Shown here piece by piece: positions 29,292-49,785 of a stretch of DNA of 64,000 bases (position 1 is the stretch's first letter; the number at the start of each line of letters is the position of its first letter). The DNA comes from Streptomyces sp. NBC_01478 (GTDB lineage: Bacteria; Actinomycetota; Actinomycetes; Streptomycetales; Streptomycetaceae). The translations under genes and the position numbers were made by a program. The stretch covers positions 8,165,501 to 8,229,500 of the forward strand of contig NZ_CP109444.1 of the NCBI RefSeq assembly GCF_036227225.1, given 5' to 3'. The notes below the pieces were generated by a model. It did not search any database. It saw only the letters and a program-made list of their open reading frames with translations, and was not told where the DNA came from.

Positions 29292-31229
29292 ATGACCAAC
29301 CCTGCGCCGCCGCGCAAGTCCCCCGATCAGCCTTGGCGTACCGAAGGCACCCCGGACGAGCCCCCGAAGCCGTCGCCGGGCGGGAAGAAGATGCGCGGCG
29401 GCTGGTGGAGCCTGATCCTCACCGCGCTGGTCGTGTACCTGGTCGCGAATCTGATCCTGTCGTTCTTCAACGAGGGCGACGAGCCGACGATCTCGTACAC
29501 GGAGTTCAGCAAGCAGGTCGACGCGGGCAACGTCACCAAGATCTACGCCAAGGGCAACGCGATCCAGGGCCAGCTCAAGAAAGAGCAGAAGAAGCCGGAC
29601 GGCGACGGCAAGTACACCAAGTTCGACACCGAGCGGCCGACCTTCGCGGACGACCAGCTCTGGGAGGACCTGACCAAGCACAACGTCACGGTCACGGCGG
29701 AGCCGGTCGTACAACACCGTAGCTTTCTGGCCAATCTCCTGATCTCGCTGGCCCCGATGCTGCTCCTGGTCGCCCTGTGGCTCTTCATCGCACGGCGGAT
29801 GAGCTCGGGGCTCGGCGGCGCGGGCGGCATGCTCGGCCGCAAGACCCCGCCGAAACCGGTCGAGCTGGAGCCGGGCAAGCAGCGCACGACGTTCGAGGAC
29901 GTGGCCGGCATCGACGAGGTCGAGGGCGAGCTGAACGACGTCGTCGACTTCCTCAAGAACCCCGACGAGTACCGCAAGATGGGCGCCAAGATGCCCCGGG
30001 GCGTGCTGCTCGCGGGTCCGCCCGGCACCGGCAAGACGCTGCTCGCGCGGGCGGTCGCGGGGGAGGCGGGGGTGCCGTTCTTCTCGGCCTCGGCCTCCGA
30101 GTTCATCGAGATGATCGTCGGTGTCGGCGCCTCACGCGTGCGTGAACTGTTCGCGGAGGCCCGCAAGGTGGCCCCCTCGATCATCTTCATCGACGAGATC
30201 GACACCATCGGCCGGGCCCGCGGCGGCGGTTCGGGTATGGGCGGTCACGACGAGCGCGAGCAGACCCTGAACCAGATCCTCACCGAGATGGACGGCTTCT
30301 CCGGCTCCGAGGGCGTCATCGTCATCGCGGCCACCAACCGCTCCGACGTCCTGGACCCCGCGCTGACCCGCCCCGGCCGCTTCGACCGGGTGGTCGTGGT
30401 CTCGCCGCCCGACCGGGGCGGCCGCGAGGCGATTCTGGAGATCCACACCCGTGAGATCCCGCTCGCGAAGGACGTGAACCTCGCCCAGGTCGCCCGGACG
30501 ACCCCGGGCATGACCGGCGCCGAACTCGCCAACCTAGCCAACGAGGCCGCCCTCCTCGCGGTCAAGCGCAAGCAGAGCGAGGTCACCCAGTCCGACCTCT
30601 CCGAAGCCCTGGAGAAGGTCCAACTGGGCGCGGAACGCCCGCTGGTGATGCCCGAGGAGGAGCGCCGGCGCACCGCGTACCACGAGAGCGGCCACGCCCT
30701 CCTCGGCATGCTCCAGCCCGGCGCCGACCCGGTCCGCAAGATCACCATCGTCCCGCGCGGGAGGGCACTCGGCGTGACGCTCTCGACGCCGGACTCGGAC
30801 AAGTACGCGTACACCGAGGAGTACCTGCGCGGCCGGATCATCGGCGCCCTCGGCGGCATGGCCGCGGAACAGGTCGTCTACGGGGTGATCACCACCGGCG
30901 CCGAGAGCGACCTCGAACAGGTCACCAACATCGCGCGCGGGATGGTCGCCCGCTGGGGCATGAGCGAGCGCGTCGGCCGCCTCTCCGCCCTCCCGAACGA
31001 CGCCCAGCAGGCCTACGGCCTCGCCGCGGCGCCGCAGACCCTGGACGTGATCGACGACGAGATGCGCCGCATCGTCGACGAGTGCTACGACGAGGCCACC
31101 CGCAAACTCCGCGACCACCGCGACCAGTTGGACGCCCTCGCGGCGGCCCTCCTGGAGAACGAGACCCTGGAGGAGACGGACGCGTACCGGATCGCGGGCG
31201 TCACGCGCCTGTTCAAGGAAGAGCCGTAG
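29292..31229 (+). CDS. ftsH: Membrane AAA+ zinc metalloprotease FtsH
   Basis: An inner-membrane ATP-dependent protease for misfolded membrane and short-lived proteins. The 645-aa protein has a Pro-rich N-terminus, TM1 (about 37-58), an extracytoplasmic domain, TM2 (about 145-166), Walker A GPPGTGKT near 242, Walker B FIDEID near 299, the second region of homology, and the zinc site HESGH near 464. The third ligand (the Asp of ESDLEQV) is present. Streptomycetes encode more than one FtsH; the mid-chromosome location next to ffh and the length suggest the second paralogue, but this cannot be proved from one window. Confidence 0.95.
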
Positions 31230-31262
31230 TCATCCTCAGGTCGTACGTGCGATGAGTCGTCC

Positions 31263-32120
31263 TCAGGTAGTACGCGCGATCAGATACCGGAAGACGTTCG
31301 GCATCCACACCGTCCCGTCCTGCCGCCGATGCGGATGCAATGCCTCCGCCAACTCCTTCTCCACCTGCACCTGATCCGTCGCGACGATCGCCGCGTCGAA
31401 GAGTCCCGTCGACAGCAGCCCTCGTACGGCACTCTCGACGTCGGCGTAGCCGAAGGGGCAGGCCACCCGTCCCGAGCCGTCCGGCCTGAGGCCCGCGCGG
31501 TGGGCGACCTCCTCCAGGTCGTCGCGCAGGACCGGGCGCGGGCTGCCCGTGCCGCGCAGCGGGTCCGCCAGCCTGGTCGCCACGCGGAGCACGGACGAGG
31601 TCGCGCAGCGCTCCGGCGGGCCCCAGCCCGTCAGCACCACGGGTGTTCCGCGCGCGGCGAGCGGGGTCGCGGTGGCGAGCAGTTCGCCGAGCCCCTCCGA
31701 GTCGCCCGCGAGGCACCCGATGGGCTCGAAGGCGGTCACCAGGGTGTACGCGGGCGTCTCCGCGTCGGCCGCGTCCCTGGGGGAGCCGTAGACAAGCCGG
31801 GTGTGCGCACGCGCGCGTGGGGACCAGGCGGCCGGCAGCAGTCGCTCGCGGGCGAGGGCCAGCCGTTCGGGGGAGAAGCGCTCGACACCGGTGACCGTCG
31901 CGCCTCTGGAGGCCGCCATCAGCAGGGCGAGCCCGGAGCCGCAGCCGAGGCCGAGGAGCCGGGTGCCGGGTCCCACTTCCAGTCGCTCGTAGACCGCTTC
32001 GTGGAGCGGCACCAGCATCCGCTCCTGGATCTCGGACCAATCACGCGCGCGTGCACCCAGGTCCACACGGGGCACGGGCCCCGTATGAGGCAGGTAGTGC
32101 CGCACGAGCGTAGGTGTCAT
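31263..32120 (-). CDS. Class I SAM-dependent methyltransferase
   Basis: A 285-aa Rossmann-fold methyltransferase with the SAM-binding LLGLGCGSGLALLMAA near residues 60-75 and an acidic GVERFSPERLALARE second strand. The N-terminal MTPTLVRHYLPHTGPVPRVDLGARARDWSEIQERML region, read here as separate pieces, may form the substrate cap. Substrate unknown; no neighbours in a common pathway are seen. ATG 32120 begins the conserved part; a longer reading to 32219 lacks a suitable start context. It is convergent with ftsH across a 33-bp gap and divergent from proS. Confidence 0.8.
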   Translation of the reverse strand: MTPTLVRHYLPHTGPVPRVDLGARARDWSEIQERMLVPLHEAVYERLEVGPGTRLLGLGCGSGLALLMAASRGATVTGVERFSPERLALARERLLPAAWSPRARAHTRLVYGSPRDAADAETPAYTLVTAFEPIGCLAGDSEGLGELLATATPLAARGTPVVLTGWGPPERCATSSVLRVATRLADPLRGTGSPRPVLRDDLEEVAHRAGLRPDGSGRVACPFGYADVESAVRGLLSTGLFDAAIVATDQVQVEKELAEALHPHRRQDGTVWMPNVFRYLIARTT

Positions 32121-42084: not shown

Positions 42085-42447
42085 ATGAACGCACGCAGTG
42101 CACTCGGCAAGTACGGCGAGACGGTGGCCGCACGACGGCTGGTAAAGGCCGGGATGACCGTCCTGGAGCGCAACTGGCGCTGTGGCAGGACCGGCGAGAT
42201 CGACATCGTGGCGCGGGACGGGGACGTCCTGGTCGTCTGCGAGGTCAAGACGCGACGGGCCGGTGCCTTCGAGCACCCGATGGCCGCCGTGACACCCCAC
42301 AAGGCGGAGCGACTACGAGGCCTCGCCGAGCGGTGGATCCACGCGCACGGCGGAGCCCCGCCGGGAGGGGTCCGTATCGACCTGGTGGGTGTCGTCCTGC
42401 CCCGGCGCGGCGGGCCCGTGGTCGAGCATGCACGGGGGGTGGCCTGA
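42085..42447 (+). CDS. YraN/UPF0102 family protein (endonuclease-like fold)
   Basis: A 120-aa protein of the YraN family, whose fold resembles Holliday-junction resolvases and restriction endonucleases. The Asp/Glu/Lys site is visible: [20 protein letters not shown] (about residues 37-57), with EID and ExK in the nuclease arrangement. It starts at ATG 42085 with GGAGG 10 bp upstream; a GTG at 42055 is too close to the terminator hairpin. It precedes comM and dprA, the common DNA-processing order in bacteria. Confidence 0.93.
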
Positions 42448-42448
42448 G

Positions 42449-44074
42449 ATGGGGTTCGCTCGTACGTGTTCGGTGGCGCTGGTGGGCGTCGAAGGCGTGG
42501 TGGTCGAGGTCCAGGCCGACCTCGAACCGGGCGTCGCCGCGTTCACGCTGGTGGGACTGCCCGACAAGAGCCTGACGGAGAGCAAGGACCGGGTGCGGGC
42601 CGCGGTCGTCAACTCGGGCGCGCCCTGGCCGCAGAAGAAACTGACCGTCGGGCTCAGTCCGGCGTCGGTGCCCAAGAGCGGCAGCGGGTTCGACCTCGCC
42701 GTGGCGGCGGCCGTGCTCGGCGCGGCCGAGCGGATCGATCCGCGTGTGCTCGCCGACATCGTGATGATCGGCGAGCTGGGCCTGGACGGACGGGTCCGGC
42801 CGGTCCGGGGCATCCTGCCCGCCGTACTGGCCGCCGCGGACTCCGGATACGAGCAGGTCGTCGTGCCGGAGTGCGCCGCCGCCGAGGCGTCGCTCGTGCC
42901 CGGGGTGTCCGTGCTGGGCGTACGCACACTGCGGCAGTTGATCGCCGTGCTCGCCGACGAACCCGTACCCGACGAGGAACCGGACGAGCTGGGACGCCCG
43001 GACCCGCTGCTCGCCGGGCTGCGCATGCCCGGCACGGGCGCTGCCACGGGGATGCACAGCATGGGCGCGGGCCAGCACGACGCGGGGCACGATCTCGCGG
43101 ATGTCGTCGGCCAGTACTCGGCGCGGACGGCGGTCGAGGTCTCGGCGGCCGGCGGCCATCATCTGTTCCTCGAAGGCCCGCCAGGGGCCGGCAAGACGAT
43201 GCTCGCGGAGAGGCTGCCCGCAGTCCTGCCCCGGCTCGGCCGGCAGGAGTCGCTGGAGGTCACGGCGGTGCACTCGGTGGCGGGCCTGCTGCCGCCGGGC
43301 AAACCCCTGATCGACACCGCTCCCTACTGCGCTCCGCACCACTCGGCCACGATGCAGGCCCTCGTCGGGGGCGGGCAGGGGATCGCGCGGCCCGGGGCGG
43401 TGTCGCTGTCCCATCGGGGCGTTCTGTTTCTTGATGAGACCCCAGAGTTCAGTGGTCAGGCGCTGGACGCGCTGCGCCAGCCCCTGGAGGCCGGCCACGT
43501 GGTGATCGCGCGCAGTGCGGGCGTCGTCCGGTTCCCGGCGAGGTTCCTGATGGTGCTCGCGGCCAACCCCTGTCCGTGCGGCCGTTTCTCGCAGGCCGAT
43601 GACTTCTGCGAGTGCGCGCCGATGTCGATCCGGAGGTACCAGGCGCGGCTCTCCGGGCCGCTGCTCGACCGGGTGGATCTACGGGTGGAGGTGGACCGGG
43701 TCACGCGTGACCAGCTCACCGGGCGTGGCTCGCGGGGCGAGTCGACGGCGACGGTCGCGGACCGGGTGCGGGCGGCCAGGGAACGGGCGGCGGCACGGTT
43801 CGCGGACACGCCCTGGCGCACCAACAGCGAGGTGCCCGGCCGTGAACTGCGCAGCCGCTGGCACGCCGAGCGCGGCGCGATGGACGAGGCCGAGCGCAGC
43901 CTGGAGCGCGGTGCGCTCACCGCGCGCGGGCTCGACCGGGTGCTGCGCGTCGCCTGGACGGTCGCCGACCTCGTAGGCCACGACCGACCCGGCGCGACCG
44001 ACGTCGCCCTCGCCCTGCAACTGCGCACGGGCGTACCGCGAGGTGTGCCGATGGGGATCGGGGCGTTGACATGA
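42449..44074 (+). CDS. comM: YifB/ComM family Mg-chelatase-like AAA+ ATPase
   Basis: A 541-aa AAA+ ATPase. In naturally competent bacteria ComM is a helicase that helps integrate donor DNA. An N-terminal Lon-protease-like fold (about 1-190, with a GFDLAVAAAVL segment) precedes the ATPase with Walker A EGPPGAGKTM near 243 and Walker B VLFLDETPEF near 327, and a Cys cluster CPCGRFSQADDFCEC near 375. Start ATG 42449 is one base after the yraN stop. Its stop lies inside the first unit of a 35-bp direct repeat, overlapping an ATG (44071). Confidence 0.94.
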   Translation: MGFARTCSVALVGVEGVVVEVQADLEPGVAAFTLVGLPDKSLTESKDRVRAAVVNSGAPWPQKKLTVGLSPASVPKSGSGFDLAVAAAVLGAAERIDPRVLADIVMIGELGLDGRVRPVRGILPAVLAAADSGYEQVVVPECAAAEASLVPGVSVLGVRTLRQLIAVLADEPVPDEEPDELGRPDPLLAGLRMPGTGAATGMHSMGAGQHDAGHDLADVVGQYSARTAVEVSAAGGHHLFLEGPPGAGKTMLAERLPAVLPRLGRQESLEVTAVHSVAGLLPPGKPLIDTAPYCAPHHSATMQALVGGGQGIARPGAVSLSHRGVLFLDETPEFSGQALDALRQPLEAGHVVIARSAGVVRFPARFLMVLAANPCPCGRFSQADDFCECAPMSIRRYQARLSGPLLDRVDLRVEVDRVTRDQLTGRGSRGESTATVADRVRAARERAAARFADTPWRTNSEVPGRELRSRWHAERGAMDEAERSLERGALTARGLDRVLRVAWTVADLVGHDRPGATDVALALQLRTGVPRGVPMGIGALT

Positions 44075-44125
44075 CCTGGAGTGGTGAGGCGATCGGGGCG
44101 ATGACATGACAGGGAGCGGTGAGGT
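44056..44125 (+). repeat. 35-bp direct repeat spanning the comM stop and the dprA start
   Basis: Unit 1 is 44056-44090, unit 2 44091-44125, identical at 30 of 35 positions (GATCGGGGCG, TGACATGAC, GGTGAGG in both). Unit 1 holds the comM stop overlapped by ATG 44071; unit 2 holds the ATG 44106 used for dprA. Confidence 0.85.
44071..44109 (+). other. 12-codon mini reading frame between comM and dprA
   Basis: ATG 44071 overlaps the comM TGA (ATGA), runs twelve codons, and its TGA (44107-44109) overlaps ATG 44106 of dprA, again as ATGA. Whether it is translated is unknown; it could pass terminating ribosomes from comM to dprA. Confidence 0.5.
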
Positions 44126-46094
44126 GAGTGGGGTCGATGGCTGGAGCAGGGGCGGTGGCTGGGCTGGGAGCGAAGGTGCAGGCGGGGTCGATGGTCGGGC
44201 CGGGGCTGGCGATGTGATCGGGATCGATGACGGGAGCGGGCGCTTTGGCTGGGCTGGGAGCGGTGGCGCGGGCGGGGTCGATGACCGGACCGGGGCCGAC
44301 GGTGTGATCGGGATCGATGACGTGAGCGAGCACCATGGCCGGGCCGGGAGCGATGGCGCGGGCAGGGTCGATGGTCAGGCCGGGAGTGATGGCGTGACCG
44401 GGACTGATGACTGGGCCGGGACCGGTGGTCCGCCCGGGGCTGCTGGCGTGAGCGGGGTGGATGGCTGGGCCGGGACCGATGATGCGGGCGGGGCTAATGG
44501 CCGAGCCGGGGCCGATAGCTGGGCCAGGACTGATGATGCAGGCGGGGGCGGTGGCTATGCCGGGAGTGATGGCGCAGGCGGGGCCGATGACCGGGCCAGG
44601 AGTGACGGCGTGACCGGGGTGGATGGCCGGGCCGGGACTCATGGCGCGGGCTGGGCCAATGACCGGGCCCGGACCGATAGCGCGACTGGGACCGACGCCC
44701 GGACTGGGACCGACGCCCGGACTGGGACCGACGCCCGGACTGGGACCGACGCCCGGACTGGGACCGACGCCCGGACTGGGACCGACGCCCGGACTGGGAC
44801 CGACGCCCGGACTGGGACCGACGCCCGGACTGGGACCGACGCCCGGACCGGGGCCAACGCCCGGACCGAGACCGACGCCCGGACTGGGACCAACGGCCGG
44901 ACCAGGACCGATGACCGGACCGAGACCGATGACCAGACCGCGCCCCAAGACGCGGGCGACGATCTGCTCGCCCGTGTCTTTCTGGCCCGGGTTGTCGAGC
45001 CCGGTGATGAGGTCGTAGGGCGGTGGATCCGGGAGCTCGGGGCTGTGGAAGTGGCTCGGAGGCTGCGGAGCGGAGGGCCGCAGCTCGTCGGGGTGACCGA
45101 CAAGCGGTGGGCCGGGCTGTGTGCGCGGGCCGGAGTGGTCGAGCCTGGGCGGGACCTGGCCGTCGCGCGGGACGCGGGCGTCCGGTTCGTGTGTCCCGGT
45201 GGCGTCGAGTGGCCCGCCCAGCTCGACGATCTCGGGGACGCGCGACCCGTCGGACTGTGGGTGCGCGGGTTGCCCAGCCTGCGGGTGTGGGCGCTCAAGT
45301 CGGTCGCCGTCGTCGGCGCCCGCGCCTGCACCGAGTACGGCGCACACATGGCGGCCACCCTCGCCGCCGGCCTCGCGGAACTCGGCTGGGTGGTCGTGTC
45401 CGGCGGCGCCTACGGAGTCGACGGCGCCGCCCATCGCGGTGCCCTCGGCGCGGGCGGGGCCACCGCCGCCGTGCTCGCCTGCGGTGTCGACCGTCCCTAC
45501 CCGCGCGGCCACGCCGAGTTGATCGGCAGGATCGCCGAACAGGGGCTCGTGGTGGGCGAGTTGCCGCCCGGCGAGCATCCGACGCCGAGCAGGTTCATCC
45601 TCCGGAACAGGGTGATCGCGGCGCTCACGCGGGGCACCGTGGTCGTCGAGGCCGCGTACCGGAGCGGATCGCTCGTCACGGCGCGGGCCGCGCAGCGGTT
45701 GGGGCGCCACACGATAGGGGTGCCCGGCCCGGCCACCAGCGGACTGTCCGGTGGTGTGCACGAACTCCTGCGCGGGGACGCGGTGCTGGTGACAGACGCC
45801 GCGGAAGTAGTCGAACTGGTCGGTGACATGGGCGAACTGGCACCGGACCGACGCGGACCGGTGCTCCCGCGCGACCTGTTGGAGCCGGCTGCCCGGCGCA
45901 TCCTCGCCGCACTGCCCGGCAACAGGGCGGCGCCGCCGCGGGAGATCGCGCGCGGTGCGCAGACGACGGAGGACGACGCCGTCGCCAGACTGTACGAACT
46001 CCGAGCACTTGGTTACGTCGAACGACACAGCGACGGCTGGAAGTTGACACGCCAGGCGATGATCTCGGTCCGGCCCGGTCGGGGGCGCCGCTGA
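44106..46094 (+). CDS. dprA: DNA processing protein DprA with a repeat-built N-terminal extension of about 285 residues
   Basis: DprA loads RecA onto incoming single-stranded DNA. The core starts near residue 287 ([18 protein letters not shown]) and has the Rossmann-fold motifs [12 protein letters not shown] near 401, [16 protein letters not shown] near 434 and [17 protein letters not shown] near 500, then a C-terminal winged helix. The total of 662 aa compares with about 380-400 for relatives. The extra part consists of 30-residue repeats (types GWAGS-GAGGVD-R and GVIGIDD) and then six-residue ARTGTD units. Between the last GTG in the repeats (44619) and the core no ATG, GTG or TTG exists in frame, so the hexapeptide array should be translated. 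The true start could be ATG 44106, GTG 44124 or a later GTG. Confidence 0.85.
44126..44660 (+). repeat. Degenerate 90-bp (30-residue) repeats in dprA
   Basis: In the dprA frame, [19 protein letters not shown] + [11 protein letters not shown] is followed by a second unit [19 protein letters not shown] + [11 protein letters not shown] and a third, [19 protein letters not shown] + [11 protein letters not shown]. Later units decay. Shorter sub-repeats (GAT/GGG-rich) lie inside. All are Gly, Asp, Ala, Arg, Thr rich and presumably disordered. Confidence 0.8.
44683..44934 (+). repeat. 18-bp minisatellite in dprA, 14 units
   Basis: The unit GGACTGGGACCGACGCCC is present eight times perfectly at 44701-44844, preceded by one copy with a single change (44683-44700) and followed by five variants to 44934. 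In frame it encodes RTGTDA, i.e. ARTGTD repeated. A perfect run of this length is expected to change copy number. Confidence 0.95.
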
Positions 46095-48813: not shown

Positions 48814-49785
48814 ATGGCCGTCGTCACGATGCGGGAGCTGCTGGAAAGCGGCGTCCACTTCGGTCACCAGACCCGTCGTTGGAACCCGAAGATGAAGCGC
48901 TTCATCTTCACGGAGCGCAACGGCATCTACATCATCGACCTGCTCCAGTCGCTGTCGTACATCGACCGCGCCTACGAGTTCGTCAAGGAGACCGTCGCCC
49001 ACGGTGGCACGGTCATGTTCGTCGGTACGAAGAAGCAGGCGCAGGAGGCCATCGCCGAGCAGGCCACCCGCGTCGGCATGCCCTACGTCAACCAGCGCTG
49101 GCTGGGCGGCATGCTCACCAACTTCTCCACCGTCTACAAGCGTCTGCAGCGCCTCAAGGAGCTCGAGCAGATCGACTTCGAGGACGTCGCCGCGTCCGGT
49201 CTCACCAAGAAGGAGCTTCTCGTGCTCTCGCGCGAGAAGGCCAAGCTGGAGAAGACCCTCGGTGGTATCCGCGAGATGTCCAAGGTTCCCAGCGCCGTCT
49301 GGATCGTGGACACCAAGAAGGAGCACATCGCGGTCGGTGAGGCCCGGAAGCTCAACATTCCGGTCGTCGCCATCCTCGACACGAACTGCGACCCCGACGA
49401 GGTCGACTACAAGATCCCGGGCAACGACGACGCGATCCGATCCGTCACCCTGCTCACCCGCGTGATCGCCGACGCCGTCGCCGAGGGCCTCATCAGCCGC
49501 TCCGGTGTCGCCGCCGAGGCCAAGGGTGACAAGGCCGCCGGCGAGCCGCTCGCCGCGTGGGAGCGCGACCTGCTCGAGGGCGAGAAGAAGCCTGACGAGG
49601 CTCCGGCCGCCGAGGCCGAGGTGCAGACCTCCGCCGAGACGGAGAAGGTCGCCGACGCCGAGCAGGCCGACGAGGTTCCCGCCGCCGAGGCCGCTGCCGA
49701 GGTCGAGGCCCCCGCCGCCGAGGCCGCTCCGGTCGCCGAGGCTGAGGTCGAGGCCGCTCCGGCCGCCGACGCCGAGCAGGCCTGA
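48814..49785 (+). CDS. rpsB: 30S ribosomal protein S2
   Basis: A 323-aa small-subunit protein. ATG 48814 follows AAGGAG at 48801-48806. The core has [20 protein letters not shown] near the N-terminus, [10 protein letters not shown] near 72 and the [21 protein letters not shown] region near 191. The last 70 residues form an Ala/Glu/Val/Pro-rich tail (AAEAEVE-type repeats), normal for actinobacteria. A GC-rich hairpin lies between it and tsf. Upstream 280 bp carry the leader; TACACT at 48631-48636 may be a -10 but no good -35 is seen. Confidence 0.97.

What the first reader, a model, noticed from the sequence alone, without database searches (positions are those of the whole stretch)
44683..44961. 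Translated 18-bp minisatellite at the N-terminus of DprA
Eight perfect and six variant 18-bp units encode an ARTGTD hexapeptide array directly upstream of the DprA core. The last possible in-frame start codons before the array are GTG 44610 and 44619; none (ATG, GTG, TTG) lies between them and the core at about 44964. So, unless a CTG or an alternative ribosome entry is used, the repeats are made as protein. A copy-number-variable tract on a RecA-loading protein would let strains differ, and could act as a tuneable tether or a disordered, positively charged arm.
Basis: partly seen in the sequence, partly recalled or inferred. Interest (0 to 1): 0.85.

Follow-up and report, generated by a model that had tools for sequence, protein, structure and literature searches.

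The report
Ever-growing repeat tail on DprA
In this Streptomyces the opening codons of the DNA-processing gene dprA seem to have been copied about 47 times into a long, very probably translated tail, and related bacteria have repeatedly grown unrelated tails at the same spot, apparently because dprA translation is tied to the gene before it, so insertions survive mainly if they keep that link.

Summary
The repeat is real and larger than reported. The window is Streptomyces. Two relatives have 44 and 36 units plus the same 9 bases; three near non-carriers have 27 nt, i.e. one unit plus 9. In an even draw of the genus the comM-stop-to-core distance runs from 5 to 993 nt; 64 of 135 have at least 60 nt. 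In 128 of 135 the core-frame start is joined to comM by stop/start overlap: 117 directly (4 nt), 4 by TGATG, 7 through a mini-ORF overlapping at both ends, the window included. Best reading: translational coupling admits mainly duplications that keep dprA coupled, so a disordered, acidic tail grows, largely as a passenger (pN/pS 0.7-1.1 in arrays, 0.15-0.20 in the core). The "positively charged arm" is wrong (27 R/K, 49 D/E). Protein evidence, coupling, tail function and strain variation are untested. Eight searches of an open library listed no report of it.

The parts
42389..44074 (+). comM/yifB-like ORF (longest form; ATG 42449 is the likelier start), upstream gene
   Evidence: Mg_chelatase, ChlI and Mg_chelatase_C in Pfam; the gene name is recalled; ATG 42449 has a strong Shine-Dalgarno score
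44056..44139 (+). 35-bp tandem duplication (2.4 copies) spanning the comM end and dprA start
   Evidence: TRF; sequence
44071..44074 (+). first overlap ATGA: comM stop TGA over ATG of the mini-ORF
44071..44109 (+). 12-codon mini-[15 protein letters not shown], bridging comM and dprA
44106..44109 (+). second overlap ATGA: mini-ORF stop over dprA start ATG
44106..46094 (+). dprA ORF, 662 aa, with a 285-residue N-terminal tail
   Evidence: PF02481 203 bits
44106..44951 (+). minisatellite: 47 x 18-bp units in one register with the start codon
44610..44621 (+). last in-frame start codons before the core (GTG 44610 and 44619), AGGAG upstream of 44610: possible alternative start
44952..44960 (+). 9-nt joint GCGGGCGAC, identical in two relatives with arrays
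44961..46091 (+). conserved DprA core
   Evidence: matches in 147 of 150 genus genomes; pN/pS 0.15-0.20 against five relatives

Best explanation
It is a coding minisatellite, most likely grown from the start-codon segment of dprA, and held in frame by translational coupling. Inferred steps: dprA is translated by ribosomes that finish comM and restart at the overlapping start codon. Slippage or unequal exchange tandemly duplicates GC-rich segments just after that start. A duplication survives mainly if ribosomes still arrive in the core frame: either its length is a multiple of three and it holds no stop, so it becomes DprA tail, or it creates a new overlapping stop/start pair, as the 35-bp duplication did here. 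In the window's clade an 18-bp segment corresponding to the start and first six codons went from 1 to 36-47 copies. The product would be an acidic, probably disordered N-terminal tail (285 residues here), tolerated mainly as a passenger under a bulk constraint on composition. Shown by sequence: array, register, homologous arrays in two relatives, frame keeping, chained overlaps, near-neutral drift of units. Not shown: that coupling operates here, that the tail is on the protein, that it is neutral, that the start codon was the seed.
For: (a) Register: W 47 units+9 nt, L033 44 units+9, L035 36 units+9, all ending GCGGGCGAC; relatives L034, L036, L037 have 27 nt = 1 unit+9. The three carriers form one clade of 11 rows, 100/99. 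(b) Frame: gap mod 3 = 2 in 121 of 135 sampled genomes. Of 64 extensions of 60 nt or more, 51 are in frame and open to the core: 47 from a 4-nt overlap and 4 from TGATG; shuffled sequence of the 51 gives a mean of 33 open, maximum 39 of 50 shuffles. Random order would give 30.7 in-frame stops in those 3242 codons; none is seen (openness is part of how the 51 were chosen, but 51 of 51 correctly framed ones qualified). TRF periods are multiples of 3 in 41 of 43 arrays. (c) Mini-ORF chains in 7 of 12 frame-shifted junctions (14 less L201 and L217) against 1.3 expected; 1 of 300 shuffles reaches 7. (d) Over 68 extensions, frame 0 alone is acid-rich (15.5% D/E, 9.0% R/K); the five other frames are net basic. 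(e) Recurrence: 44 extensions of 90 nt or more fall into 34 groups without DNA similarity at E 1e-5; a comM tree of 138 rows needs 34 label changes, 11 forced by starred branches. (f) Drift: pN/pS in arrays 1.06, 0.73, 0.73, core 0.15-0.20. (g) Published reporter work in E. coli and Haloferax: coupling needs short overlaps, is almost abolished at about 20 nt, and the last 15 nt of an upstream gene can suffice (PMC10666635, abstract, outline and one section read).
Against: Composition is not free: short standard N-termini are 27-29% D/E, and 95 of 120 N-terminal segments are net negative, 8 net positive, so some constraint exists. Seven of 135 junctions show no coupling by my criteria (L151, L187, L194, L199, L201, L203, L217), as do 7 of 37 in other genera. 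Start-codon seeding is not general: 9 of 55 extensions reuse their first 15 nt at p<0.05; L033 and L035 pass, W itself does not. Internal GTG codons have equal or better Shine-Dalgarno scores than ATG 44106. In frames 1 and 2 the array pN/pS of W (0.79, 0.80) is not far from frame 0 (1.06), and the pairs overlap, so the test is coarse. Expanded genomes are clustered on the tree (34 changes against 46 for shuffled labels). The AlphaFold model is too poor to show disorder (mean pLDDT 39, core included).
Confidence: 0.66

Rival explanations
1. Functional acidic arm: the tail is kept because its length and negative charge modulate DprA, for example by weakening non-specific DNA contact or spacing partners, and repeat number tunes it.
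For: Acidity persists in short and long N-termini although random DNA of that composition would give 6% acidic and 19% basic residues; recurrence in 34 unrelated sequence groups; [quoted passage not shown]
Against: Unit residues drift with pN/pS 0.7-1.1; 71 of 135 sampled genomes have under 60 nt and three near relatives have 27 nt; in three genomes (L145, L149, L181) the stretch is largely a separate mini-ORF rather than DprA tail.
Confidence: 0.17
2. Internal initiation: most DprA starts at GTG 44610 or another GTG in the array, so only part of the tail is made, or several forms are made.
For: GTG 44394 and 44610 score -7.5 kcal/mol for Shine-Dalgarno pairing against -6.1 for ATG 44106; database entries for F-525 begin inside the array.
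Against: Overlapping starts are kept in 128 of 135 genomes, and weak Shine-Dalgarno scores are usual at the overlap starts of relatives too (-5.0 to -6.1). Either way the homogeneous array is translated.
Confidence: 0.09
3. DNA-level element: the repeat serves as a binding array or recombination site and its reading as protein is incidental.
For: The unit keeps GG at codon 3 with GGG in every W unit's third position column (entropy 0), i.e. no synonymous drift there.
Against: Other species have unrelated units at the same place; the array is nearly unique in the genome, one other weak match; frame keeping would not be needed.
Confidence: 0.05
4. Assembly artefact.
For: Tandem arrays are prone to miscounting.
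Against: Single 12.1-Mb contig; independent assemblies of two relatives carry homologous arrays in the same register.
Confidence: 0.02

Closest known systems
NeuO poly-psi domain (VNTR-coded N-terminal heptads, E. coli K1)
   Same: Tandem repeat at the gene's 5' end, translated as a variable N-terminal extension that is disordered in the crystal (PMC3046976, passages read)
   Different: NeuO's 7-bp unit gives on/off phase variation, and its heptads are basic and raise activity; here the 18-bp unit cannot shift frame, the tail is acidic, and no effect on activity is known
Translational coupling by termination-reinitiation at ATGA/TGATG overlaps
   Same: Same -4 and -1 nt overlaps (PMC10666635, abstract and one section read)
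   Different: Here the overlap appears to dictate how a minisatellite may grow, and mini-ORFs bridge frame-breaking duplications; coupling itself was not tested
DprA/Smf (e.g. PDB 3maj, 3uqz)
   Same: Core matches PF02481 and solved DprA chains
   Different: The 285-residue tail lies outside every matched stretch shown
In-frame structural variation in M. tuberculosis PE/PPE genes
   Same: Bias to in-frame length change (PMC12817950, abstract and outline read)
   Different: Here it recurs at one operon junction in many species, with unrelated units

Membership tests
DprA/Smf | DNA_processg_A domain (PF02481) | tested here: met
   203 bits, cut-off 29.6; best solved chain 3maj, E 8e-39
DprA/Smf | RecA loading on single-stranded DNA | not testable with these tools
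   needs biochemistry
Coding minisatellite (translated tandem repeat) | tandem units of about 10-100 bp in an open reading frame | tested here: met
   47 x 18 bp, no in-frame stop
Coding minisatellite (translated tandem repeat) | copy number varies | tested here: met
   between species only: 47, 44, 36, and 1 in three relatives; strains of one species not available
Coding minisatellite (translated tandem repeat) | repeat present in the protein | not testable with these tools
   comparative sequence supports it; no proteomics
Phase-variable contingency locus | gain or loss of a unit shifts the frame | tested here: not met
   18-bp unit; periods multiples of 3 in 41 of 43 arrays
Translationally coupled gene pair | -4 or -1 nt stop/start overlap | tested here: met
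   117 direct 4-nt, 4 TGATG and 7 chained of 135; the window is chained through a mini-ORF
Translationally coupled gene pair | downstream translation depends on upstream translation | not testable with these tools
   needs reporters
NeuO-type repeat-tuned enzyme | activity scales with repeat number | not testable with these tools
   needs purified variants

The most novel reading that the evidence does not exclude
DprA of Streptomycetaceae carries a fast-evolving acidic N-terminal arm that has arisen again and again from unrelated minisatellites. Its sequence is irrelevant, but its charge and length regulate DprA's grip on single-stranded DNA or RecA, so that species, and perhaps strains, tune recombination by repeat copy number; the comM-dprA overlap is the frame guard that makes this length variation safe.
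Probability: 0.15. Interest if true: 0.78.

Novelty: new variant of a known kind. Interest (0 to 1): 0.52.

Why it matters
It offers a natural record of how an operon junction filters mutations: dozens of unrelated tandem expansions at one place are kept mostly when they leave the next gene's start joined to the previous gene's stop, and several frame-breaking ones are bridged by tiny overlapping ORFs. That makes coupling a testable evolutionary constraint, warns that database starts of actinobacterial DprA may be wrong, and supplies a ready series of tails (1 to 47 units) for asking whether an N-terminal tail changes a recombination mediator.

Tried and rejected
Charge claim rejected: 27 R/K, 49 D/E. 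Phase variation rejected: frame-neutral units. Dispersed repeat rejected: one other, weak match in the genome, 79 nt at 77%, in an ORF that looks like a histidine kinase (my reading of the translation) with its own GTGAGTGTG run. Protein-level conservation of the hexapeptide rejected: pN/pS 1.06, 0.73, 0.73, and third codon positions are not the most variable by column entropy. The start codon as a universal seed was tried and is not general (9 of 55). Strain-level copy variation: among the 120 listed of 7433 protein hits none exceeds 94% identity, and the database is clustered at 90%, so untestable. A stop count in frame +1 was dropped as evidence because the overlap itself puts a TGA there; in frame +2, 23 of 51 extensions hold a stop. 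Structure: AlphaFold on 20 similar sequences gave mean pLDDT 39 and was not taken to fold search; a charge-hydropathy proxy puts the tail on the disordered side (0.402 against boundary 0.441) and the core on the folded side.

Rows not counted: of 147 genus genomes with a DprA match, 142 loci were held and 135 parsed; 7 loci failed the comM/core search, and 5 genomes with contig-edge or weak hits were not fetched. L201 and L217 were left out of the tree and of the chain null but stay in the 135. Of 40 loci from other genera 37 parsed. The junction control used 20 genomes, of which 15 gave the comM-dprA distance. The 68 extensions mix the even draw with close relatives and include near-duplicates (L025 and L104). 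The 44 are W, L033, L035 and in-frame extensions of the even draw.

Eight paper searches listed nothing whose title or abstract start reports DprA N-terminal repeats; listings were capped and the library lacks most subscription journals. Papers seen: PMC3046976 (passages), PMC10666635 (abstract, outline, one section), PMC12817950 (abstract, outline).

Full report
WHAT IS THERE. The window lies in a single 12.1-Mb contig; its closest named DprA relatives are Streptomyces. The local order is UPF0102 - Mg-chelatase-like comM - dprA - sigma factor (the names comM and whiG are recalled). Laid out from the ORF's ATG at 44106, the whole extension falls into 47 consecutive 18-bp units without a shift, ending at 44951, then 9 bases (GCGGGCGAC) and the core. 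Roughly the first 32 units are degenerate, the last part is almost uniform. The tail would be 285 residues, rich in Gly, Asp, Ala and Thr, with 27 R/K against 49 D/E.

RELATIVES. In many relatives the comM stop overlaps the dprA start (ATGA or GTGA) and the core begins 27 nt after that start: one 18-nt unit plus 9 nt. NRRL F-525 (L033) has 801 nt = 44 units + 9 and S. prunicolor (L035) 657 nt = 36 units + 9, both ending in the same GCGGGCGAC; their unit consensus is the same and differs from W's by one base. The three carriers form one clade (100/99), and their sister group (S. hokutonensis, STR69, MBT53) has no array. Units that begin with V or M, then T or S, then G resemble ordinary DprA starts, so the likeliest seed is the start-codon segment itself. 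This is inferred from register and resemblance; a match test supports it for L033 and L035 but not for W's own diverged first unit.

A RECURRENT EVENT. In an even draw of 150 genus genomes 147 had DprA and 135 junctions could be parsed; the distance from comM stop to core ran from 5 to 993 nt, with 64 of 135 at 60 nt or more. Of 44 extensions of 90 nt or more, blastn at E 1e-5 makes 34 groups. On a comM tree (FastTree, many weak branches) the label needs 34 changes, 11 forced by starred branches, against 46 for shuffled labels: many gains or losses, with some clustering. In 37 parsed loci from other genera of the family the range is 8 to 908 nt, 25 of 37 at 60 nt or more; 26 have a direct 4-nt overlap in frame, 3 TGATG, 1 a mini-ORF, 7 none. 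Control over 20 genomes: UPF0102-comM varies by 2-4 nt (19 genomes) and dprA-sigma factor, intergenic part included, from 233 to 326 (20 genomes), while comM-dprA spans 8 to 555 (15 genomes, SD 168). The other junctions close in W (150 nt or less) have SD up to 63, from a single outlier, and 62; some longer stretches that hold intergenic DNA or other genes vary more. Only about a dozen junctions were compared, so 'exceptional' is local.

WHY IT IS PROBABLY TRANSLATED. Gap length is 2 modulo 3, the value that keeps the overlapping start in the core frame, in 121 of 135. All 51 long extensions with that frame are open to the core, 47 from a 4-nt overlap and 4 from TGATG; shuffled sequence gives 33 on average, at most 39. 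TRF periods are multiples of 3 in 41 of 43 arrays. Only frame 0 has a protein-like charge composition.

THE EXCEPTIONS ARE TELLING. The window's own gap is out of frame for the first overlap: a 35-bp tandem duplication breaks it. But the duplicated piece carries the junction with it, so a 12-codon [15 protein letters not shown], now starts at the comM stop and ends in a second ATGA at the dprA start. Six other genomes of the draw show the same design (L121, L135, L145, L149, L181, L182), and L100 outside it. Of 14 frame-shifted junctions, two (L201, L217) were set aside; 7 of the remaining 12 are chained, against 1.3 expected, reached in 1 of 300 shuffles. Seven of 135 show no coupling by my criteria. 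Published reporter work finds that coupling needs short overlaps and is almost lost at about 20 nt, and that 15 nt of upstream gene can suffice (PMC10666635). A junction under such a rule would pass just these duplications.

IS THE TAIL FUNCTIONAL? Array units differ from each other with pN/pS 1.06 (W), 0.73 (L033) and 0.73 (L035); the two wrong frames give 0.79-0.80 for W and 0.88-1.42 for the others, so the test is coarse. The DprA core between W and five relatives gives 0.15-0.20. Residue identity is thus nearly free while the enzyme is constrained. Composition is not free: short N-termini are 27-29% acidic and 0-4% basic, tails over 250 nt still 13% against 8%, and random DNA of that base composition would give 6% and 19%. 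I read this as a bulk constraint, perhaps against basic tails on a DNA-binding protein, and keep a tuned acidic arm as the main rival. The tail is on the disordered side by charge-hydropathy; the AlphaFold model shows no secondary structure in residues 1-281 but is too poor overall to count.

STARTS. Internal GTG codons, notably 44610 with AGGAG upstream, could give shorter forms. Database entries of 434 and 458 residues lie on contigs of the length of F-525's contig, against 644 from the overlapping start (267 tail residues plus a 377-residue core).

VERDICT. A real, very probably translated coding minisatellite; ordinary in its mutational mechanism (slippage or unequal exchange, inferred), unusual in its recurrence at one junction, its probable start-codon seed and the way coupling appears to police it. 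It is not the positively charged arm proposed, and there is no support yet for tuning, although an acidic arm with a role is not excluded.

Noticed in passing
G027, G082, G092; G185, G194, G199: In six Streptomycetaceae genomes dprA matches come in two pieces about 5-36 kb apart on one contig, with a short overlap of query residues: it looks like an integration hot spot inside the dprA core.
   Followed up: no
window 49594-49776: The C-terminus of what looks like rpsB (name recalled) carries its own Ala/Glu-rich tandem repeats (periods 18-30): another acidic low-complexity tail in the same window.
   Followed up: no
L121, L135, L145, L149, L181, L182, L100: Mini-ORFs between comM and dprA with 4-nt overlaps at both ends.
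   Followed up: yes
L002 (G000:C1:5687638-5687716): The only other match to the array in the genome: an ORF that looks like a histidine kinase, ending in a GTGAGTGTG run.
   Followed up: partly
P0013, P0014: Two DprA entries on contigs of the same length (326,833 bases) begin at different places in the array: database starts for this gene are unreliable.
   Followed up: partly
window 31228-31280: A 27-bp direct repeat, two copies, in the gap before the ORF at 31329.
   Followed up: no
genera g3 and g14: Many DprA matches there report one TGA inside the match, perhaps alignments that run past the true stop.
   Followed up: no
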